Assembly: GCA_022641835.1 (NCBI GenBank)
Contig: CP048715.1
Location: 2,604,001-2,668,000, forward strand
Origin: Petasospora fabianii
Lineage: Eukaryota > Ascomycota > Saccharomycetes > Phaffomycetales > Wickerhamomycetaceae
Length of the DNA stretch: 64,000 bases
Direction of reading: 5' to 3'
Within the stretch, counting starts at the first letter, position 1. Each line of letters starts with the position of its first letter. The notes below the pieces were generated by a model that did no database searches, had not been told where the DNA came from, and saw only the letters and a list, made by a program, of their open reading frames with translations. The position numbers and the translations under genes are program-made. Below are positions 12,680-58,258 of the stretch, piece after piece.

Positions 12680-13966
12680 TCACGACATGCTCATTATCTT
12701 GCTGAACAAGATTGGAGGAGCAGTCTCAAACAGGAATGAATCTTCAGCAGCAACATGTGTAATAAGATCCTTAGCGAAATCAAGCACTTGGCTCTCCGAG
12801 AAATGACCACGATCAAATAACTCCAACATTGTTTTGGCAGCATGGCGTCTTTGGTCAAGCTCCTCTCGGGTAAGACGGGCCCGGTACATAGGCTTTTGTG
12901 AAGTCAAAGTGTGTCCGGAGAGGATCATATCTGTGACATAACTTGTGCTAGAGTCTGGCGATGATCTGGCAAAGTCTGAATCTATGGCTTCTTGGTATGA
13001 AGTGATGAGCTTGCGTTTCTTCAGCTGTGGCGAGTGTAACACATTTGGAGCGTATTCACAGGGAACGTCGTCTACAATGCATCTCGAACACTGTGGTTTA
13101 TCCCTTGTACAATATTTCTTCTGGCTTTTGCAATAGCTGCACGGTGTCTTTGAGCGTTGGCTCTCTGTCATGGATGGAATTAGTGTGTGCTCCCTAGTAG
13201 GTGCCTTCTTTCCTGAAGACTTGACGACCACTGATCGTACTTTTCTCTTCGGTTTCTCTTCTAGGGTTCCCTTAGCAATCTCCATAAACTGGCCTATGTC
13301 AAATGATTTGGACTCGTCTTCCTCTGTGGTTGAGGACATTGGCAATGCGATGTTGACCAAAGGTAGGGATGGAGATGCCGTTGCTTGGTCCTCGCTCTCT
13401 GTGTTTTCATGCTCCTCATCTTCCATCCTTGAATCGTAGTTGTCTTCATCAGGATTATACCGAAAAATAATTTCCTCGTATTCAAGACCATCAATACTAG
13501 CAGGATCAATGCGTTCTCGCATTTCAAGATATCTCAAAGTATCTGCATGGTTGATTTGATACCAACTCAACGCTTTCTTTCTCGCTGTCTCCGGGAGGAC
13601 TTTCACTGCCTCATTATATTTCTCCTGTGAAGACACTATCAGCCCAGTAGACTTGTCATACTGTACGTCCTCATCAAGAAGTTTCGTGACACACATACCA
13701 CGATACATGACCTGTCTCCAGTGCTTGAAGATATCTTCAGTGTTATATTCATGTTCTGGGAACTTTCTGTTCATCTTCGACGCGATACGAGTCTTTTCCT
13801 CTTCTGAGAGTATCATACTCATTTTGATTTCAACTATTCGGGAGACAATCTTCATGAAGAAGAGACTTGGTCGTATGGGCCAAAGTGGACTAAAATTGGA
13901 GTAGAGGCGCGTTTTGTCCTTGGGGACTTCACTGAGTGGTTCAAGCTGTGCGATTCCGAGAGTCAT
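12680..13966 (-). CDS. Myb/SANT-like plus Zn2Cys6 regulator
   Basis: 428 aa. A zinc cluster sits unusually in the middle: Cys276, 279, 286, 293, 296 and 303 (CSYCKSQKKYC, then CSRC) with a KKRK basic tail. N-terminal residues about 24-150 resemble the Myb/SANT-like DNA-binding fold (Pfam Myb_DNA-bind_3 type). They show an opening Trp, a helix reaching KMNRKFPEHEYNTEDIFKHW, then LLDEDVQYDKSTGLIVSSQE in the position of the usual GWD...sdevW stretch. An acidic low-complexity region (about 180-215) separates the domains. There is no fungal-specific middle homology domain, so it is not a standard Gal4-class factor. The N-terminal assignment is by eye and moderate. An alternative is a lineage-specific domain of unknown function. 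Confidence 0.8.
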   Translation of the reverse strand: MTLGIAQLEPLSEVPKDKTRLYSNFSPLWPIRPSLFFMKIVSRIVEIKMSMILSEEEKTRIASKMNRKFPEHEYNTEDIFKHWRQVMYRGMCVTKLLDEDVQYDKSTGLIVSSQEKYNEAVKVLPETARKKALSWYQINHADTLRYLEMRERIDPASIDGLEYEEIIFRYNPDEDNYDSRMEDEEHENTESEDQATASPSLPLVNIALPMSSTTEEDESKSFDIGQFMEIAKGTLEEKPKRKVRSVVVKSSGKKAPTREHTLIPSMTESQRSKTPCSYCKSQKKYCTRDKPQCSRCIVDDVPCEYAPNVLHSPQLKKRKLITSYQEAIDSDFARSSPDSSTSYVTDMILSGHTLTSQKPMYRARLTREELDQRRHAAKTMLELFDRGHFSESQVLDFAKDLITHVAAEDSFLFETAPPILFSKIMSMS

Positions 13967-15106
13967 TTGATCATTTGCCTTGTCATGGATATTAGTTAGG
14001 TTAACAGAATAGGGTGTAAGGGAAATTATTGAACATCAAGGCACCAGTGATCGTGTAGTGCGATGCAGGTGTAAGTCCTAACGCGCCTTGAATCAATATC
14101 ATCCGGACACCACGTTTTAGACTACACTTCTCATCTCTGGTGCTATGTTTGCTATGAAGTTGACGTTCTCAAAGCTCATCTACCCAAGGTTCCTCGCTGA
14201 CGAACTCGAGCTACTGCCAGAGATCAGCTCTGTTTTGCACAAACTGGAGCACTTAATGTCTATCCAGTGGGCCACGCCATAAATCCTTACAATGTTCAGC
14301 TTCTACAAAGGACCTGACTTGTGATTGTACTAATGTTATGAAAGGATCCACTGACAACCAGATATCTGGGGTCCCTAAACTTAGAGCCTCACACTGAATG
14401 GCCTGCTGGAACCCTAGTGTAGCAAACTTAAATGTAGTTAGACTTTCAACGGGAGCCTTTGTTAGAGTAACGAGCGTCTAATTTGGAAAGCTTACAGATT
14501 TACGGCTTCTAATGCCAGATAGCTTGTACTGGGTGAAATAGTGTATTTCAATCACTGTTCTCTTTCAACTAAAGATGAAGATTGTTATGCAGTAAGGTGC
14601 TAACAGTCTCTAGTGACAGACCTCAAGCAGTAAACCACTACCATTCAATGTTGCAGTTGGGCTTGTTACCTTTATATTGAGTAAGCTCCTCATTCGAGAA
14701 TATCTTGTTCAAGATCACTCTTTCTCTGATTTTCATCTGTGAGGGCACTTTAAAGTGGTCAAACGACGGCTCTCATTTCCAGGACGGAGCAGAGAATGTT
14801 GATATCCCTCATGCTCAAAAAGTCTAGAACTACGGATCGATGAGTTAGCTATGACTGGAGGCGGTGAGTTTGGAGCGCATTACTCAAAGTCTTGGTGATG
14901 AAGTAGCGGTCATTATGTTGTTACTAGTGTCCATTGTTAGTTATCAGTTGATCTGGGGCCAGGGCCCAGGACCCAATAGCCGCGATATCGATCGGAAAAG
15001 TAATCGGAATTCCGGTTTGGTTGGTTGCCGGCTAAATTGTTTACCGAAAGGTAAACCCCGGCCTAGGTGGGGATTATCAGTAATCTAATAACCAGTAGCA
15101 CACTGA
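13967..15106. other. Intergenic between divergent regulator and phosphatase genes
   Basis: No coding frame with support. Near the right end a perfect 7-bp stem with a GAAA tetraloop (GTTTACC-GAAA-GGTAAAC) lies at 15039-15056. It is next to a GC-rich patch containing GGGCC-rich inverted repeats near 14955-14975. Nothing else recognised. Confidence 0.45.
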
Positions 15107-15228
15107 GCGCCAAAGCGAGCGCAATCAACCACAGGGAACAACAATGATCGACTCCTGAGACAAGACTCTGTCTAAGACGCTTGCGCCAAAGTGCGCCAAA
15201 GTGCGCCAAAAAATGCCCAGACACGCGT
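15107..15228. promoter_or_regulatory. GCGCCAAA motif cluster and MluI box
   Basis: Four identical GCGCCAAA motifs occur at 15107-15114, 15183-15190, 15193-15200 and 15203-15210. The last three are exactly 10 bp apart, about one helical turn. An ACGCGT box follows at 15223-15228. GCGCCAAA read in reverse is TTTGGCGC, which matches the E2F-type consensus. In yeasts related cell-cycle boxes are bound by SBF/MBF. Lies 180-300 bp upstream of the preferred phosphatase start. Confidence 0.55.
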
Positions 15229-39412: not shown

Positions 39413-40056
39413 TCAGAAATCAAGCTCTCTTACACCGTCCTTGTCAACAACCTTGACATACACACCCTTGAAGTCCATTGGCATTCTTGTCTCAAGTTCC
39501 TTGATACAAAGCTTCATAAGGTCCATACCCTGTTCAACAGAGAAGTCTGGTCTGTAGTGGTGATCGAGAAGGGAAAATGTGTAGAAGGCGGCATAGCCAT
39601 GTGCGGCGTATGGAAGCTCCACATTCGTTCCGAGGTAGTCAATGGAGCTTAGGAAAGGCTCCTTTTTCTTGTCGTCGAAACCAGCGATCAACACATTGAC
39701 TTGGTACGGTTTCTGTAATTGATGTTAGTTCATGTCGGGGAGCATTAAGTATTTGAGGGAAGCAGACTCACTCTTGATCTAAGCGACTTCGCCAATTCAT
39801 TTCTCGTGAAGCTTGCAATGGCCTTTGGAGAGAGTTCATAACTTTCACGGATGTTATAGAGCTGAATATTAGCCTGAATGTACTCAGCAAATTGCACCTG
39901 GTCACCAGGCTCACCTGTAAAGGCCATCAATGTATGTTCGGAGAGGGGTCTTGTCTTATCGTCATCAGCCTTGAGAATGGAAATACCTCTGGTGGCAGCC
40001 TTCGATGTGGCCACAAGGACACTATCCTTGAGCTTGATTGAGAGAATGACGTCCAT
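39413..40056 (-). CDS. PRE1: Proteasome subunit beta 4, PRE1 (spliced)
   Basis: 194-aa non-catalytic 20S core subunit (yeast Pre1 is 198 aa). Exon 1 is 39772-40056; exon 2 is 39413-39712. The 59-nt intron has donor GTGAGT, branch AACTAAC and acceptor TACAG, phase 0. Splicing joins ELAKSLRSR to KPYQVNVLIAGF exactly as in the family. Start chosen at MDVILSIKL, matching yeast MDIILGIRV; an in-frame ATG at 40086 would add ten residues. Diagnostic segments: DDKTRPLSEHTLMAF, QFAEYIQANIQLYNIRE, YLGTNVELPYAAHGY and MPMDFKGVYVKVVDKDG. Divergent from PRI1. Confidence 0.96.
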
Positions 40057-40319: not shown

Positions 40320-41708
40320 ATGCCAACTATATCTGCAGCAGCTAATGACTCGCTCCCGGTAACGTCGTCAGCGTCGTCTAGCCCAATCAAGCCTGCGGGA
40401 AAGCCACTGGCATCTTCCCCAATCGCCGCTAACTCATCAATCCTCTCTGATGGGGTTAAGCCAGAGGAATCAGCGTCAAAGAAAGTGGAACTATCAGGAG
40501 AAGATATGCGTTTCTACTATGAGCGTCTGCTTCCCTTCCGATATGTCTTCCAGTGGCTAAATCACTCTCCAAAGCCACAACCAGACTTCACTATGAGAGA
40601 GTTCGCCTACGAGCACAGATCCGGTGCCTACCAACGTTACAACTCATTTGAGTCCTTGGAGAACTTCAAACAGTCTGTTGTGAGAGCCAACCCAATGCGT
40701 TTTGAAGTGGGTCCAGTCTATGCAATCAATCCAAGTAAGAGAAAGAGTGTACCAAAGAGTGCCATGAAAGCTCTTGAAAAGGAGTTGGTCTTTGATATTG
40801 ATCTGACAGATTACGATGAAATCCGTACATGTTGTTCCAAGACTAAGATCTGTACAAAGTGCTGGAGGTTCATTACTGCCGCCACAAAGGTTCTAGATGC
40901 TGCACTGAGGGAGGATTTTGGTTTTGAACACATGATTTGGGTTTTCTCGGGAAGACGTGGTGCACACTGTTGGATCAGTGATAAGAGAGCCAGGATGCTT
41001 GATGAGCCAAAGAGAAGAGCAATTGTCGAGTACTTGGACGTGCTGAAGACAAAGGGATCCAAGAGACTAAATCTTCGTCGTCCATTGCATCCACACATTG
41101 AACGTTCGTTGACAATGTTAAAACCGGACTTCATTACCATCATTCAGGAGCAGGACCCATGGAGAGATGATGAAGTTGCAACTCAAGAGCTCTTGTCAAA
41201 GATTCCTGTCCAGACACTTGTTGATGACATCAAAAAGATGTGGAAGACGAAGCCGAGAAGATCGAGTTTGGATAAGTTTAAAGATATCAGTGAGATGGCT
41301 CAACGTCTGCCAAAACCATTCGAGAAAAAGATGGTAATTGAGGCTGCAGAGGACATGATCTTGGAGATGGTATATCCGAGACTTGATGTCGAGGTTACCC
41401 GTCAGATGATTCACTTGCTGAAGTCACCATTCTGTATTCACCCAGGAACAGGTAATATCTGTGTTCCATTCGATGCAAGCTGGGATTTCAATCCAATGGA
41501 GGCACCAAATCTTCATCAGATCCAGAAGGAGCTGATTGATTACGACTCCAACAACACAGAAAACAGCGAGAGAAAGATTGCTAATTGGGACAAGACCTCA
41601 TTGAAGCCCTACACGGACTTCTTTGCTGACTTTGTCAAGGAGTTGCTCAAGTCTGAGAGAAACGGTAAGCGTGAACGTGATGACAACGAGGAGGACTTAG
41701 AGTTCTAG
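40320..41708 (+). CDS. PRI1: DNA primase small (catalytic) subunit PRI1
   Basis: 462 aa; makes RNA primers in the polymerase alpha-primase complex. Catalytic Asp159 and Asp161 in LVFDIDLTDYD, followed by the zinc-binding CCSKTKICTKCW. SGRRGAHCWISD is the nucleotide-binding His/Ser motif. KSPFCIHPGTGNICVPFD is also family-typical. The first about 60 residues are a Ser/Pro-rich extension before MRFYYERLLPFRYVFQWLNHS. S. cerevisiae Pri1 is 409 aa, so the extra length is N-terminal. The CTG codon in DIDLTDYD sits at a conserved hydrophobic position. Single exon. Confidence 0.97.
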   Translation: MPTISAAANDSLPVTSSASSSPIKPAGKPLASSPIAANSSILSDGVKPEESASKKVELSGEDMRFYYERLLPFRYVFQWLNHSPKPQPDFTMREFAYEHRSGAYQRYNSFESLENFKQSVVRANPMRFEVGPVYAINPSKRKSVPKSAMKALEKELVFDIDLTDYDEIRTCCSKTKICTKCWRFITAATKVLDAALREDFGFEHMIWVFSGRRGAHCWISDKRARMLDEPKRRAIVEYLDVLKTKGSKRLNLRRPLHPHIERSLTMLKPDFITIIQEQDPWRDDEVATQELLSKIPVQTLVDDIKKMWKTKPRRSSLDKFKDISEMAQRLPKPFEKKMVIEAAEDMILEMVYPRLDVEVTRQMIHLLKSPFCIHPGTGNICVPFDASWDFNPMEAPNLHQIQKELIDYDSNNTENSERKIANWDKTSLKPYTDFFADFVKELLKSERNGKRERDDNEEDLEF

Positions 41709-41821
41709 AGTCAACTGGATACTAGCAATGTGTGTACATTATAATTTATTGGATGGTCATGATAGTAAAGCAATGAATATGGTAAGTGGCGTTGTGATAA
41801 TAAGATAGAGGATCACGATGA

Positions 41822-44101
41822 CTAGCAGAGGAAGGATAAAAAAGTATCCAAGCATGTACGACCTTGAACTTTTGGAAGATAATCTAGGGAGCCATATGCA
41901 GTGATTTCGATACTTTGTCTTCCTGGACCATGATACCACAGCAAGTCGTCAGACACCTCATCAAACTCATATCTACCAGAAGAAGCAATAATCTTAGCGT
42001 CAACGGTAAAGTGCCAATCTGGGAAGTAGATCTTGGTTGGAGCATCAGTAGAGCTAGCACCGACAATTGTCAATGTATACTTCAGGTTCTTGAGATCAAA
42101 GAAGGCATCAATGAATTCACCATTGATAGCTGAACAGTACGGACGAATTATGGAGTCAACTGCCCTGAGTCCAGCAGAAGGCTGATTTGGTCCAGCGATC
42201 GCCTTTTGGTCGTCCTTGGTAGCCTTAACTGTTACTGCTAGCTTATTCTTTGTCGACTCAAAATTGCCTCCAGCAGAACTGTTAGCCGTTGAGTCCGAGT
42301 CACTGAACCCCGTAGTAGCCCGGAGACCGGACAGAGAACTTCTCGAGCCTGGCAAAGTGGAGTCATCAAGATCATCATCAACGGACCAAAATGAGAAGTC
42401 CTCAGAGTTGAATCTGTCACCCCATTTGTGACAGTTATCAGCTGTGTAGTTCCACCAGGTGTGAGACAAGTTGTTTCCCTCCAATGCGTATCCAAGGGCA
42501 TCCAACGACGAAGTCTGAGAGGAAAAGTCACCATCTTCATAAGCTTTCTTGTCATCCATGTCAAATGGAGAACCAATCTCAGTAAAAATGACAGGTACTG
42601 TAGCACCCAAATTTTCGACTGCTTCCTTCTTCATTTCTCCGAGTTGCTTTTTAAAACTGTTTCTGATATTGTTCTCGCCGAAGACCATACCAAAAACTGG
42701 GTTTGAGTACTTATGTCTCATAAGACCATATGTATCAACGTTGTAGCGCCTGTTCCAAGTTTTGAACATCAATGACATACCATCGTAATAATGTGGACAA
42801 AAGACGGTATTATCATCTATCAGATCTGTTCCCTTGAGCTTAGGTGGGATTCGAAGCGGAGGAGACTGCATGAACATCATGGTATCAGGGATCACATCTC
42901 TGACGGCCTTTCTGTATGCTCTGTAGTGATCAACAAAGTAGTGGTTGATGAAGTACTCCTCGTCGACAGTATCACCGGTCTCAGGATGAACGCTGAAATA
43001 GTCTCTTTTCAGTGGCTCACAGGTTTCTGGCTCCCACACTCCATGTTGTGCCCAAATGCATTCACCAGTATTCCATTCAGCTCCCCTCACAAAATTGTAA
43101 TGCTCGTCATACGAGGAGTCTTCCAACCATGCGATGACGCCTTCTGGATCAACGTATTGCGTTCCCGTCTTTCTTGGACCGAACACGGTAATCTTGTACT
43201 CATCAATCTCAGTGGCTATACCACTTCCCGTTCTCAGCGACTGGAACACAGTGGGACAGGTTCCAAGCTTCAGTTGTTGATCTGGTGGGATTTCGGTGAT
43301 GTCAGTGATACCGAGATAACCGCCATTCGGTTCGTTTAAACTCTCAACACCAATGATCAATTCATCGAATATGTGTGGGGCAGCATCCTTGATACGCTGT
43401 AGGAAGTGAGTGATGGCACCAATGTAGTGACTCTGGAGATAGTCTTGGATATTTACCCCATTGATGATGCACTTTGGCGCGAAGTCTTTGCCTGCAAAGA
43501 ACAATGTGAACATAGTGGCCGTGATGAGCCTTTGATAGTTGGTAGTCCAAAGCATCTTTGGGTAGGAATCTGGGTCTTGTGGGAAGTAGTTTTGCAAGAT
43601 GGCTGATTGTGTGACGTTGAAGTTGTGAGGATCCATGCCGGCAGCGTAGAGGGTCCATAACGGAGCTCCGTCTCCTCCGGTGTAGCGGGACCAAACGTCC
43701 TGGTGTGGGTCGATGAAGACGTACATACCGCCAACATGCTCGATGATCTTGAAGAGTTCAATGGTGTACCCAATGAAGTCTTCGTCGTACTTTCCAGGAC
43801 CTGCGTGTTCGATGGCTTCCCAAGTCACAACGTATCTAAGTGTGTTGTATCCGAGCCTCTTGATCCTGAGCAGGTGGCCCACAGCCTCGTCCAAGGGGAA
43901 GGGGCGCCCAACGAAAGACACATTATCTCCATCAAAGAAGACTCCCTCGTTACGCTCTACAGGAACGTGGGATGGAAAGTACGGCGTACGTGGGTATTTG
44001 GCGCCTCCATCAACGTTGATTCCTTTGAGCTGGATGATACGGCCCTGCGTGTCCGTAAAGTTCCCGTCCTTAATCTTGATCTTGCCGAAAGGAAGCGACA
44101 T
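41822..44101 (-). CDS. EGH1: Steryl-beta-glucosidase EGH1 (GH5 family)
   Basis: 759 aa, near the 764 aa of yeast Egh1, which degrades ergosteryl glucoside. Glycoside hydrolase family 5 barrel: GRIIQLKGINVDGGAKYP, RYVVTWEAIEHAGPGKYDE, FIDPHQDVWSRYTGGDGAP, the acid/base Glu257 in ESLNEPNGGY and the nucleophile Glu508 in VIFTEIGSPFDMDD. NNLSHTWWNYTADNCHKWGD follows. The C-terminal beta domain ends in SLDYLPKVQGRTCLDTFLSFLC. The last codons contain an in-phase T TTT TTA run, and the -1 frame past it is a strongly hydrophobic tail (see findings). Whether the annotated stop is the only end is uncertain. Divergent from PFK1. Confidence 0.95.
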   Translation of the reverse strand: MSLPFGKIKIKDGNFTDTQGRIIQLKGINVDGGAKYPRTPYFPSHVPVERNEGVFFDGDNVSFVGRPFPLDEAVGHLLRIKRLGYNTLRYVVTWEAIEHAGPGKYDEDFIGYTIELFKIIEHVGGMYVFIDPHQDVWSRYTGGDGAPLWTLYAAGMDPHNFNVTQSAILQNYFPQDPDSYPKMLWTTNYQRLITATMFTLFFAGKDFAPKCIINGVNIQDYLQSHYIGAITHFLQRIKDAAPHIFDELIIGVESLNEPNGGYLGITDITEIPPDQQLKLGTCPTVFQSLRTGSGIATEIDEYKITVFGPRKTGTQYVDPEGVIAWLEDSSYDEHYNFVRGAEWNTGECIWAQHGVWEPETCEPLKRDYFSVHPETGDTVDEEYFINHYFVDHYRAYRKAVRDVIPDTMMFMQSPPLRIPPKLKGTDLIDDNTVFCPHYYDGMSLMFKTWNRRYNVDTYGLMRHKYSNPVFGMVFGENNIRNSFKKQLGEMKKEAVENLGATVPVIFTEIGSPFDMDDKKAYEDGDFSSQTSSLDALGYALEGNNLSHTWWNYTADNCHKWGDRFNSEDFSFWSVDDDLDDSTLPGSRSSLSGLRATTGFSDSDSTANSSAGGNFESTKNKLAVTVKATKDDQKAIAGPNQPSAGLRAVDSIIRPYCSAINGEFIDAFFDLKNLKYTLTIVGASSTDAPTKIYFPDWHFTVDAKIIASSGRYEFDEVSDDLLWYHGPGRQSIEITAYGSLDYLPKVQGRTCLDTFLSFLC
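41837..41843 (-). promoter_or_regulatory. Candidate -1 ribosomal slippery heptamer in EGH1
   Basis: On the minus strand the EGH1 frame reads ACT TTT TTA TCC, so T TTT TTA is in the zero phase needed for tandem -1 slippage. Six codons further lies the EGH1 stop. The -1 frame stays open to 41757 and encodes a hydrophobic stretch. A weak GTGAT/ATCAC stem lies downstream. An indel in the T run is the main alternative. Confidence 0.4.
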
Positions 44102-47586: not shown

Positions 47587-48945
47587 TCACCGAGGTCCAA
47601 AATCTTCAGCTTTCTTGTAAGAGCCTGGTCTTCCTAGCTGTGGCAGTCTGTAGCTAGATTCAAAAGAGGCAGACACAGTATTTTTGGAAGGACGATCGTT
47701 GGTTGTCTTGATGGAGATCGTATCCGAATGCTCGTCCTCTTCATCTGAGGAGGATGGCGTCGACAACGAGGACCAGGTTTCGGTACCTGATGAGTAAGCA
47801 TATATTTTCTCAGAGCCAATGTCAATCGGGGTTATATGGGATCCTTGCTTTGTTGGCTCGAGCTTTTTGGACAGTTTTTCCTCGTTAGCCCTCTCAGTGA
47901 CAATCTCAGCATCGTTCATCTCACCATCCTGGATATCGTCAGTGCTATCCTTGGAGGTAGTAAAATTTATGGACTTTGGAATGGAGACAATCATGAAGTC
48001 TTTGATGACATACCAAGTAAGGTTGTCCATGTCAACCTCCTTCTCTTTGAATTGGTAGGACTCATAGACGTTGTCAGCATTGAATTTTATCTCAAGATTG
48101 ACACCACCTTTTCCGGCTTTGTAGGTAATAGCGTAGGACCCAAAGTCCTTCCTACGAGCATGAGGTCTCACGATCTGAACCTGGAACATATCTTCAGACT
48201 CTAAGACTCTCGAGTCAACCTTCAAAACGTTGAACGCTTGACCATGACGACCGCTGCGACCGTGACGACCGCGGTGGCGACCACCAAACGCTTTCATACC
48301 GGTGGCCCCGGCTTGACCAGGGAACTCATGGCCTCTGTGAGGACGACCGTGACGACCTAGATATTGGAAGCTGTGACGTGAACCCTTCTCAAAGAAGACA
48401 TTAGCATCTTGCTCGGTCTTCTCGGGCTTAAATTCAGGCTCGAATTCTGGATGTGCTGGAGGTGGAGGTGGTCCGTAGTGGTGGAAGCCGGAGCCCCCGG
48501 GGCCAGTTGATGGTGGAGGAGGTGGTGGTGGAGGTGGACCATGGCCGAAGCACCTCCGATGAAACTTCGGTGGAACAGGTGGTGGTGGGCCATACTCACC
48601 GCATCCTCTGAAAGAGAGATCCAGCGGTGGTGGAGGTGGATGAGGGCGGTGATGGCCATGGCCACCAGGGCCCCCTAGACCGTCACAACCTTTTGGGCGA
48701 CTTGTACCACCGCAACTTCTAATCCCCCTTGAAGCCTGGCGTATATCCCCGAAGTGAAAGACATTCGACTCATTGGCATATGGGCTTTGGAAACCACTTG
48801 TCTTTTGACGTGGGCAATCTTCGAAATCTGGTTGCCTGGAGCCGACGGCCTCGAAGTCGCCGTGGTGACAACGGATACCGCGTTGGCCATGGCGACCACG
48901 GCGATGTAGAGAAGATGCTTGGTAGCCAGAGAGACAGAACATCAT
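47587..48945 (-). CDS. Divergent small heat-shock-like protein (alpha-crystallin type)
   Basis: 452 aa. Residues about 1-240 are low-complexity: RRGRHGQRG and GRHGRSGRHGQ repeats, GGPGGHGHHRPHPPPPP, several long proline runs. Residues about 242-330 look like a divergent alpha-crystallin domain (FNVLKVDSRVLESEDMFQVQIVRP, YAITYKAGKGGVNLEIKF, WYVIKDFMIVSIPKS). The C-terminus is acidic and Ser/Thr-rich. The layout recalls Hsp42, which also has a long disordered N-terminus. The assignment is by eye and tentative. The stop codon overlaps a perfect GTGAGT donor, so a short downstream exon is possible. A TATA-like box lies about 70 bp upstream. Convergent with PFK1. Confidence 0.6.
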   Translation of the reverse strand: MMFCLSGYQASSLHRRGRHGQRGIRCHHGDFEAVGSRQPDFEDCPRQKTSGFQSPYANESNVFHFGDIRQASRGIRSCGGTSRPKGCDGLGGPGGHGHHRPHPPPPPLDLSFRGCGEYGPPPPVPPKFHRRCFGHGPPPPPPPPPSTGPGGSGFHHYGPPPPPAHPEFEPEFKPEKTEQDANVFFEKGSRHSFQYLGRHGRPHRGHEFPGQAGATGMKAFGGRHRGRHGRSGRHGQAFNVLKVDSRVLESEDMFQVQIVRPHARRKDFGSYAITYKAGKGGVNLEIKFNADNVYESYQFKEKEVDMDNLTWYVIKDFMIVSIPKSINFTTSKDSTDDIQDGEMNDAEIVTERANEEKLSKKLEPTKQGSHITPIDIGSEKIYAYSSGTETWSSLSTPSSSDEEDEHSDTISIKTTNDRPSKNTVSASFESSYRLPQLGRPGSYKKAEDFGPR

Positions 48946-56211: not shown

Positions 56212-57153
56212 ATGTCACTTGGGCAATCTTCTGGAGCCTTCTCGGCTCTCAAGACACCCGTGTCGTCACCTGAAAAGACCCTAAACAATGTGAAGACCCC
56301 TCTCCTGAAGAAGCTCGAGAGTAATACAGTTCCATCTGCTGAAAACGCCAATCCAGCGAAGAAGAAAAGAGGGAGACCACCAAAAGCGAAGGTATCCGTT
56401 GATTCTGTACCCTTCCCAGGAACAACCTTGCCGTCAAGTGTGCCTCATTCCCTGGCTAACTCAACGGAGCCTCCGAAGAAGAAGAGAGGTAGACCACCAA
56501 AGTCTAAAAACCCCGCCGACTCAAATTCCTCAAAGCCAACTACTTCATCTACATCCATCGCTGTTCCGACTATCACACCTTCCAACGTGGCTAAAAGTGA
56601 GCTGTCATCTTCTGCTAGTTTGACCAGCACCCCATCAGGCAGTTCAAATGTACCAAAGAAAAGGGGCAGACCCAAAATGACCCCAGAGCAGAAGGAAGCT
56701 GCTAGAATTGCCAGGGCAGCCAGTACCATCCCATCTCAAAAGTCCAATGACCACGATGATGGTAAGAAGGTCAAAAAGCAGAAGCCTCCTGGCGCCTTGC
56801 AAGACAATACACCAGCTAGTGTTCCAGACGCTTCTGGCCCATCTGTGCCTTTGTGGAAATCCTCTAAATATACTCCAACTCGATTCCTTCCAGATCCAGA
56901 TATGTTCTACAGCATTCGAATGGCGCAGATTAATACATTGACCACGCTTGAGGAGGTTGCTGAAATCCGTGAGTACATGAGAGTAATGGGGCAGATAATG
57001 GACAGCTGGACCACCGAGATTGACTCTATCGAGAACAAAATTCTCTTTGACTATGTCATACAAAATGAGAAGCTAAAGCAGAACTTAAAAAGGGAAGCCA
57101 AGGTTGTCGAGGAGAAGGCTAAGACCCCAGATCACGTTAGCAATAGCAACTGA
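56212..57153 (+). CDS. AT-hook protein with C-terminal helical module
   Basis: 313 aa from MSLGQSSGAFSALKTP; the open frame reaches a TTG at 56170 that is not a start. Three AT hooks: RGRPPK at residues 53-58 and 92-97, and RGRPKM at 151-156, each preceded by lysines. These are minor-groove AT-binding motifs and imply a chromatin role. The low-complexity Ser/Pro/Thr linkers lack other domains. Residues about 237-300 form a predicted helical region (MAQINTLTTLEEVAEIREYMRVMG...), resembling the C-terminus of the next gene's product. I do not recognise an ortholog. Its shared promoter boxes with the next gene suggest joint function, perhaps as subunits of one chromatin complex. Confidence 0.8.
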   Translation: MSLGQSSGAFSALKTPVSSPEKTLNNVKTPLLKKLESNTVPSAENANPAKKKRGRPPKAKVSVDSVPFPGTTLPSSVPHSLANSTEPPKKKRGRPPKSKNPADSNSSKPTTSSTSIAVPTITPSNVAKSELSSSASLTSTPSGSSNVPKKRGRPKMTPEQKEAARIARAASTIPSQKSNDHDDGKKVKKQKPPGALQDNTPASVPDASGPSVPLWKSSKYTPTRFLPDPDMFYSIRMAQINTLTTLEEVAEIREYMRVMGQIMDSWTTEIDSIENKILFDYVIQNEKLKQNLKREAKVVEEKAKTPDHVSNSN

Positions 57154-57415: not shown

Positions 57416-58258
57416 ATGGCACGTACAGAAGGTGTCCATACATTTCGTGTGGAAGGGTACGCGAAGAAAGCTACGACACCAATGAAACTTGCCTCGCCTA
57501 ACGCTGAATCTGATGTCACGAAGGGAACACCGCTCTTCTCCAGGTGGAGAACCACACCTCCATCGAACAGCAAACCCACACCACCGAGACGTGGTCGTAA
57601 AAGAAAGGACGATGGGGACCTTGAACCACTAGCTGATAGCTCTGCATTAACAGAGGACGATGTAACCCCTGACAACTCAATGGTTGAGCAAACTCCAAAG
57701 ACCAAGCAGCCCAAGACACGAGTGAGCGGGACACCAGCGAAGTCCGCTGATACTTCAGTAACAACCCCAGCCAAGACACCTCTCAGCGCCAAGTGGTCTG
57801 CTGATGCGAAGTCAAATACACAGACGCAACCTCTACTCCAATCAATGCAGAACCCAGTACCATTTATAACACAACCGCTCCCACCACCACCAGCAACAGT
57901 TATGCCCCCTCAGTATCCATCACAAGATGTAATGCTAAATCCTTCCCTACGTAATCGCCTTCGCTCGTGTTTTGAAGAGATCTCAACACTACAAGAGCTT
58001 CATGAGTTCCATGCCCTCTTCAACGGCCTCGTACAAGAGAAGCAAAGCATGCTTACAACAGCATACATGAACAGCTCCCCTGAGTTCAAAAATATGGTAG
58101 TGCAACAGGCCCTCATATATGAAAAACATAATAGCAGTCATGGTTGTGTGGGCCCTCCGGATGTACCGCCCAGTGCGATACAAAAGCCCGGTGTCTATTC
58201 GACGCAGGTGAAGGGTGTGTGGCAGCCGGAGAGACGTTCGCCTGGCGACGCCAAATGA
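57416..58258 (+). CDS. Possible paralog of the adjacent AT-hook protein
   Basis: 280 aa. One basic AT-hook-like patch (PPRRGRKRK, residues about 57-64). Two similar short motifs, GTPLFSRW (about 37-44) and KTPLSAKW (about 119-126), are spaced in Thr/Pro/Lys-rich disordered sequence. A Pro-rich stretch (PLPPPP) precedes a C-terminal helical region from about residue 182 (RLRSCFEEISTLQELHEFHALFNG) similar in pattern to residues 237-300 of the upstream protein. No catalytic domain. I do not recognise an ortholog. Tandem with the preceding gene, 262 bp between, both with ACGCGT boxes. A nuclear role is inferred only from the basic and hook motifs. Confidence 0.72.
   Translation: MARTEGVHTFRVEGYAKKATTPMKLASPNAESDVTKGTPLFSRWRTTPPSNSKPTPPRRGRKRKDDGDLEPLADSSALTEDDVTPDNSMVEQTPKTKQPKTRVSGTPAKSADTSVTTPAKTPLSAKWSADAKSNTQTQPLLQSMQNPVPFITQPLPPPPATVMPPQYPSQDVMLNPSLRNRLRSCFEEISTLQELHEFHALFNGLVQEKQSMLTTAYMNSSPEFKNMVVQQALIYEKHNSSHGCVGPPDVPPSAIQKPGVYSTQVKGVWQPERRSPGDAK

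What the first reader, a model, noticed from the sequence alone, without database searches (positions are those of the whole stretch)
41757..41870. Candidate programmed -1 frameshift giving EGH1 a membrane-anchor tail
Seen: near the EGH1 C-terminus the zero frame reads ACT TTT TTA TCC, an in-phase T TTT TTA heptamer (the class used by several -1 frameshifting genes), six codons before the TAG. Shifting to -1 after it opens about 27 codons, running ILPLLVIVILYLII... to a TGA at 41757, a typical single-pass hydrophobic segment. A chance frame being this hydrophobic exactly at a slippery site is unlikely. Inference: Egh1 could exist as soluble and tail-anchored forms. Alternatives: a true or artefactual loss of one T in the run (a 7-T allele would read straight into the tail), or chance. 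The downstream stem (GTGAT/ATCAC) is weak.
Basis: partly seen in the sequence, partly recalled or inferred. Interest (0 to 1): 0.75.

Follow-up and report, generated by a model that had tools for sequence, protein, structure and literature searches.

The report
Out-of-frame hydrophobic tail after yeast EGH1
Just past the end of a yeast gene for a sterol-glucoside-cutting enzyme lies a very greasy stretch in the wrong reading frame that looks like a membrane anchor; nothing shows that ribosomes are programmed to reach it, and a one-base sequence difference or coincidence explains it at least as well.

Summary
In the EGH1-like gene (minus strand, 44101..41822) an in-phase T_TTT_TTA heptamer lies at 41843..41837, followed in the -1 frame by 26 very hydrophobic codons and a TGA at 41759..41757. 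The predicted fold ends near residue 735, before this point; residues 738-759 are of low confidence. The programmed-frameshift reading lacks its second defining part: no downstream structure was found (z = 0.25; the only weak stem starts 20 nt away). The -1 frame is open for 37 codons upstream, so a shift at many places would reach the tail. Such hydrophobicity is rare by chance (5e-5 to 6e-4 per frame, by method), though one other intergenic place in the window matches it. Codon choice in the tail is between coding and non-coding. In 11 of 90 prokaryotic relatives a C-terminal membrane segment sits at nearly the same distance from the domain. My favoured reading is a C-terminal anchor out of frame by a one-base difference (allele, recent loss or sequence error), 0.42; chance is close behind, 0.38; programmed frameshifting 0.12. 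No sister-species sequence was available, and that is the deciding test. Splicing was tested and rejected.

The parts
41822..44101 (-). EGH1-like (steryl-beta-glucosidase, GH5) zero-frame gene, 759 aa
   Evidence: Pfam Cellulase and Glyco_hydro_5_C 653-733; best solved relative SglA 8exd, E 1.3e-217
41891..44101 (-). residues 1-737: the part supported by homology or fold; last predicted strand 727-734
   Evidence: alignment to SglA ends at 737; AlphaFold2 model pLDDT <50 for 738-759
41837..41843 (-). in-phase T_TTT_TTA heptamer (six-T run 41843..41838)
41822..41824 (-). zero-frame TAG stop
41760..41837 (-). -1-frame hydrophobic tail, 26 codons (P0002)
41757..41759 (-). -1-frame TGA stop
41757..41948 (-). 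extent of the open -1 frame (37 codons before the slip point plus tail and stop); in-frame ATG at 41855
41794..41816 (-). weak GTGAT/ATCAC hairpin, no better than shuffled sequence; starts 20 nt after the heptamer

Best explanation
The soluble 759-residue zero-frame protein is the product of the sequence as given. The hydrophobic stretch behind it is most likely a C-terminal single-pass membrane anchor of this Egh1 that stands out of frame in this sequence by a one-base length difference between the end of the enzyme fold and the stop, most simply in the six-T run. The cause would be an allele, a recent lineage-specific loss or a sequence error. No dedicated recoding signal delivers it, though rare slippage at the T run could leak a little anchored protein. 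Shown: position, frame, hydrophobicity and the lack of a simple stimulatory fold. Inferred: that the tail was ever translated in frame.
For: (1) The tail is extreme: the only one of 24 -1 gene ends at KD19 2.5 or more. P(2.74 or more) is 5e-5 (all 3' flanks) or 6e-4 (own flank) in Markov simulations and 1.6e-4 in base shuffles. In real intergenic DNA of the window, 8 of 37,206 26-codon starts, all at one place, reach 2.7. (2) Synonymous codon choice lies inside the coding range (33rd percentile of 516 coding windows) and above 97% of 135 overlapping 3'-flank windows. With the tail's own base composition, P is 0.061 against the non-coding null and 0.088 against coding. (3) Geometry: in the 11 of 90 prokaryotic relatives with a TM-like tail the segment starts 95-101 residues after a conserved Arg-Pro and the protein ends 117-128 after it. 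The -1 tail here would start at 103 and end at 129, just outside both ranges. The zero frame ends at 107; the 79 others end at a median of 89. (4) C-terminal anchors come and go in the family: at least 2 changes forced, 3 needed, on an 89-row tree. Cryptococcus EGCrP1 is described as having a transmembrane domain (PMC9698648, passage). (5) A six-base run, a likely place for a one-base length change (recalled), lies in the unstructured linker; only 10 runs of 6 or more lie in the CDS examined.
Against: No ortholog was seen, so an in-frame tail is not shown in any yeast. Known fungal relatives do not carry one as far as seen: CnSgl1 is called cytosolic and without the transmembrane domain (PMC9698648, passage), and SglA was crystallised full length (PMC10128061, passage). 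No broken conserved gene was seen in 10 of 61 gap ORFs, and the genes listed were chosen for being open, so the assembly gives no sign of frequent one-base errors. The codon signal is weak. The tail lacks the basic residues that follow the segment in all 11 prokaryotic tails. One unrelated intergenic place is equally hydrophobic (maximum 2.99).
Confidence: 0.42

Rival explanations
1. Chance: the TAG is the genuine end of a soluble Egh1 and the C/T-rich 3' flank happens to read as a hydrophobic peptide in the -1 frame.
For: The EGH1 3' flank is 35% T and 26% C, and T-rich yeast intergenic DNA is reported to have a widespread potential to encode TM domains (PMC7005711, abstract and passages). 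Another gene in the window (12680..13966) has a 49-residue -1 tail with KD19 2.31 and no slippery heptamer, and a read-through frame after 17477 reaches 2.19. In real 3' flanks 4 of 72 sense frames reach 2.0 where a like-for-like Markov model expects 0.8, so the simulated P values are too small. An intergenic place at 13967..15212 (-) reaches 2.99. Some 48 shifted frames and several kinds of oddity were open to notice.
Against: Values of 2.7 or more are rare even in real intergenic DNA (one place in 20.7 kb, both strands; none of 72 flank frames). It must coincide with the only near-end heptamer (chance 0.03 per gene) and with partly coding-like codon choice.
Confidence: 0.38
2. Programmed -1 ribosomal frameshifting at T_TTT_TTA adds the anchor to a fraction of Egh1, giving soluble and membrane forms.
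For: Canonical heptamer in phase, U_UUU_UUA being the HIV shift site (PMC5009743, passage). It ends in TTA, the least used Leu codon here (23 of 480 in 7 genes). Long open hydrophobic -1 frame. [quoted passage not shown]
Against: No stimulatory structure by simple folding: MFE -2.5 kcal/mol, z 0.25, 111 of 200 shuffles fold as well, and the stem starts 20 nt downstream. Pseudoknots were not modelled. No conservation data.
Confidence: 0.12
3. A short overlapping reading frame starting at the -1-frame ATG (41855), 32 codons, is translated on its own as a small membrane peptide; or another route such as readthrough or splicing reaches the tail.
For: ATG at 41855 in the open -1 frame.
Against: That start lies over 2.2 kb downstream of the gene's own ATG, where scanning ribosomes would not be expected. 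Readthrough in frame 0 meets a stop after 2 codons. Splicing: no GTRNGT donor between 41960 and 41700, and the only CTRAC is at 41952, about 125 nt from the TAG and inside the Pfam domain; the window's own intron has GTGAGT, CTAAC and CAG within 59 nt.
Confidence: 0.08

Closest known systems
Fungal steryl-beta-glucosidases: S. cerevisiae Egh1 (YIR007W), C. neoformans Sgl1/EGCrP2, A. fumigatus SglA (GH5_12)
   Same: Same two-domain architecture and Pfam domains; SglA is the best solved match
   Different: Sgl1 is described as cytosolic and SglA was crystallised full length (passages); one later paper calls EGCrP2/Sgl1 vacuolar in its title (PMC12061408). No out-of-frame hydrophobic tail is mentioned in the passages I saw
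C. neoformans EGCrP1 (glucosylceramidase, GH5_12)
   Same: Same family; said to have a transmembrane domain (PMC9698648, passage)
   Different: Its domain is described as part of the protein; its position in the chain was not seen here
Chloroflexota GH5_12-like proteins with a C-terminal TM tail (for example L005, L053, L059)
   Same: Hydrophobic segment at nearly the same distance after the beta-sandwich
   Different: In frame, and followed by basic residues
Pezizomycotina Rab-GDI displacement factor -1 frameshift
   Same: Fungal nuclear gene, U-rich slip site close to the ORF end, new C-terminus
   Different: Pseudoknot 2 nt after the site in Podospora and long conservation (PMC5009743, passage); neither was seen here
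HIV shift site U_UUU_UUA
   Same: Identical heptamer (PMC5009743, passage)
   Different: Here no downstream structure was found

Membership tests
Programmed -1 ribosomal frameshift | in-phase X_XXY_YYZ heptamer | tested here: met
Programmed -1 ribosomal frameshift | stimulatory stem or pseudoknot a few nt downstream (about 5-9, recalled) | tested here: not met
   z 0.25, stem starts 20 nt downstream; pseudoknots not modelled
Programmed -1 ribosomal frameshift | site and tail conserved among relatives | not testable with these tools
   no yeast relative found
Programmed -1 ribosomal frameshift | frameshift product made | not testable with these tools
   needs a reporter, profiling or proteomics
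Egh1/Sgl1/SglA steryl-beta-glucosidase (GH5_12) | GH5 barrel plus C-terminal beta-sandwich | tested here: met
Egh1/Sgl1/SglA steryl-beta-glucosidase (GH5_12) | conserved Asn-Glu-Pro and second Glu of the active site (roles recalled) | tested here: met
   N256 E257 P258 and E508 invariant in 28 sequences
Egh1/Sgl1/SglA steryl-beta-glucosidase (GH5_12) | hydrolysis of steryl glucosides | not testable with these tools
   needs an enzyme assay
Tail-anchored membrane protein | single hydrophobic segment at the very C-terminus | tested here: inconclusive
   present only in the -1 frame; Kyte-Doolittle only, no dedicated TM predictor was run
Tail-anchored membrane protein | segment in the reading frame of the protein | tested here: not met
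   zero frame stops at 41822
Alternative splicing to a TM exon | donor and branch point before the TAG acceptor | tested here: not met
   with the intron as yardstick

The most novel reading that the evidence does not exclude
A yeast nuclear gene uses an HIV-type U_UUU_UUA site four codons before its stop to make a minority tail-anchored form of steryl-beta-glucosidase, setting the share of the enzyme held at the membrane where its lipid substrate lies, without a classical stimulatory structure.
Probability: 0.12. Interest if true: 0.75.

Novelty: new member of a known kind. Interest (0 to 1): 0.27.

Why it matters
If the tail is real, this yeast's Egh1 was, or in part is, a membrane-anchored enzyme acting on a membrane lipid, in a family where anchors come and go. 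If it is programmed, it would be a rare cellular -1 frameshift in a budding yeast. If it is chance, it is a clean example of how T-rich 3' flanks mimic anchors.

Tried and rejected
Splicing to the tail: rejected. In-frame readthrough: two codons only. A stimulatory fold: not found. Search for yeast relatives: none in viral contigs or by protein in genome contigs. All 118 encode relatives; 90 held a usable 3' end and 28 were cut or short. The TM cut-off was 1.55 (11 of 90); at 1.6 it is 10 of 90. The tree used 88 of those 90 plus the yeast protein; L043 and L034 were dropped. The structure alignment used 27 of the 118. Metagenome contigs was not scanned because its cap was 0. No whole genome is held. 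Assembly quality: 10 of 61 gap ORFs were tested against Pfam; two matched families over their length, eight matched nothing. A first null comparison set real flank frames against a simulation with another statistic and overstated the gap; one search repeated it like for like (4 of 72 against 0.8 expected). The intergenic count still held two genes; one search masked them (8 of 37,206 in place of 8 of 40,286). Papers on a yeast tail anchor made by frameshifting: searches listed 2 and 4 papers. By titles and abstract openings none described such a case; of these I saw passages only of PMC5009743. The papers cited for content were seen as passages or abstract, none as a whole text. Recalled and unverified: S. 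cerevisiae Egh1 may end in a prenylation-type motif; (CaaX with YIR007W) found 0 papers, so it carries no weight here.

Full report
What is there. The window looks like budding-yeast DNA from its genes; no whole genome is held for it. On the minus strand, 44101..41822 encodes a 759-residue GH5 enzyme with a Glyco_hydro_5_C domain at 653-733. Its closest solved relatives are A. fumigatus SglA (8exd, E 1.3e-217) and a C. neoformans protein (7lpo, E 2.4e-150) that is Sgl1. The convergent neighbour is a DNA primase small subunit gene ending at 41708, and a phosphofructokinase gene lies on the other side.

Where the enzyme ends. Alignment to SglA stops at residue 737. An AlphaFold2 model built on the protein and 27 prokaryotic relatives (mean pLDDT 80, pTM 0.85) puts the last strand at 727-734 and gives residues 738-759 pLDDT under 50. 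The linker, slippery site and TAG are therefore outside the confident fold; 22 codon positions separate the last aligned residue from the stop.

The observation. The heptamer T_TTT_TTA is in phase at 41843..41837, and the -1 frame yields 26 residues with a 19-residue Kyte-Doolittle maximum of 2.75 before a TGA at 41759..41757. It is the only T_TTT_TTA among 13,791 in-phase codon positions of 25 frames, and the only one of 18 canonical heptamers within 23 codons of the end of its frame. At that rate a gene has a 3% chance of one there. The -1 frame is open for another 37 codons upstream and contains an ATG at 41855, so the match of tail and slip site is looser than the finding implies.

How surprising is the tail? 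Among 24 gene ends (23 true ones, since 39745 is an exon end) it is the most hydrophobic in the -1 frame; 3 of 24 reach 1.6, 2 of 24 reach 2.0 and 1 of 24 reaches 2.5. In the +1 frame none of 24 reaches 1.6; for readthrough 2 of 24 do. Markov simulations give P(2.74 or more) of 5e-5 with all 3' flanks and 6e-4 with this gene's own flank; base shuffles of the tail give 1.6e-4. In real intergenic DNA, 8 of 37,206 starts of 26 codons reach 2.7, all at one place (13967..15212, minus strand, maximum 2.99). Real flanks are heavier-tailed than the model: 4 of 72 sense frames reach 2.0 against 0.8 expected like for like, and none of 72 reaches 2.7. T-rich yeast intergenic DNA is reported to harbour a widespread potential for TM domains (PMC7005711, abstract and passages). 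Many frames and oddities were open to notice, so chance stays a strong rival.

Codon choice. Measured by synonymous codon usage of 13,816 window codons, the tail scores 1.71: the 33rd percentile of 516 coding windows, above 86.6% of 516 shifted coding windows and above 97% of 135 overlapping flank windows, this gene's own flank included. Correcting for the tail's own base composition leaves it between the two models (P 0.061 against non-coding, 0.088 against coding). This leans weakly towards a coding past and is not decisive.

Programmed frameshifting. The 79 nt from 41838 to 41760 fold at -2.5 kcal/mol; 111 of 200 shuffles do as well, z = 0.25. The only hairpin starts 20 nt after the heptamer. 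Pseudoknots were not modelled. The heptamer itself is the HIV shift site (PMC5009743, passage). A fungal precedent near an ORF end exists, with a pseudoknot 2 nt after the site in Podospora and deep conservation (PMC5009743 section 27, passage). Programming is therefore possible but unsupported beyond the heptamer.

Splicing. The T run, pyrimidines and TAG resemble a 3' splice site. A proteasome-subunit-like gene in the window (name recalled) has an apparent 59-nt intron with GTGAGT, CTAAC and CAG. At EGH1 there is no GTRNGT donor between 41960 and 41700, and the only CTRAC is at 41952, inside the conserved domain. Splicing is rejected.

Relatives. No yeast relative was found. Of 90 with a usable C-terminus, 11 have a TM-like tail (cut-off 1.55; 10 at 1.6), all 11 from Chloroflexota records and all with basic residues behind the segment. 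Their segment starts 95-101 residues after a conserved Arg-Pro and they end 117-128 after it. The yeast -1 tail would start at 103 and, counting 755 residues up to the slip point plus 26, end at 129, just outside both ranges. The 79 others end at a median of 89, the yeast zero frame at 107. On an 89-row FastTree the TM label needs 3 changes, 2 of them forced by well-supported branches. EGCrP1 of Cryptococcus is said to have a transmembrane domain that Sgl1 lacks (PMC9698648, passage), and SglA was crystallised full length (PMC10128061, passage). So anchors come and go in this family, and this is about where one would sit; but the nearest known fungal members are described as soluble or without a TM domain.

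Verdict. I put 0.42 on an anchor left out of frame by a one-base difference, 0.38 on chance, 0.12 on programming and 0.08 on other routes. These weights are judgement, not computed; the corrections made on checking (129 in place of about 128 residues, five-fold in place of ten-fold excess) were too small to move them. One alignment with a sister species would settle it.

Noticed in passing
window 39771..39713 (-): Apparent 59-nt intron (GTGAGT ... CTAAC ... CAG) in a proteasome-subunit-like gene (name recalled); the ORF listed at 39745..40056 is only its first exon.
   Followed up: partly
window 12680..13966 (-) and its 3' flank: A Zn-cluster gene whose -1 frame also opens into a 49-residue hydrophobic tail (KD19 2.31) without any slippery heptamer; used as a chance control.
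   Followed up: yes
window 13967..15212 (-): Intergenic stretch with a minus-strand frame as hydrophobic as the EGH1 tail (26-codon maximum 2.99).
   Followed up: no
L059, L005, L105, L068, L031, L053, L029, L004, L079, L088, L097: Chloroflexota GH5_12-like glucosidases with an in-frame C-terminal membrane-like segment followed by basic residues; 11 of 90 relatives.
   Followed up: partly
window 56212..57153 (+) and 57416..58258 (+): Neighbouring genes, one with an AT-hook match and one with no Pfam match; their C-terminal parts look alike by eye and may be diverged tandem copies.
   Followed up: no
window 47587..48945 (-): 452-residue ORF with a Gly/Pro/His-rich first half and no Pfam match.
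   Followed up: no
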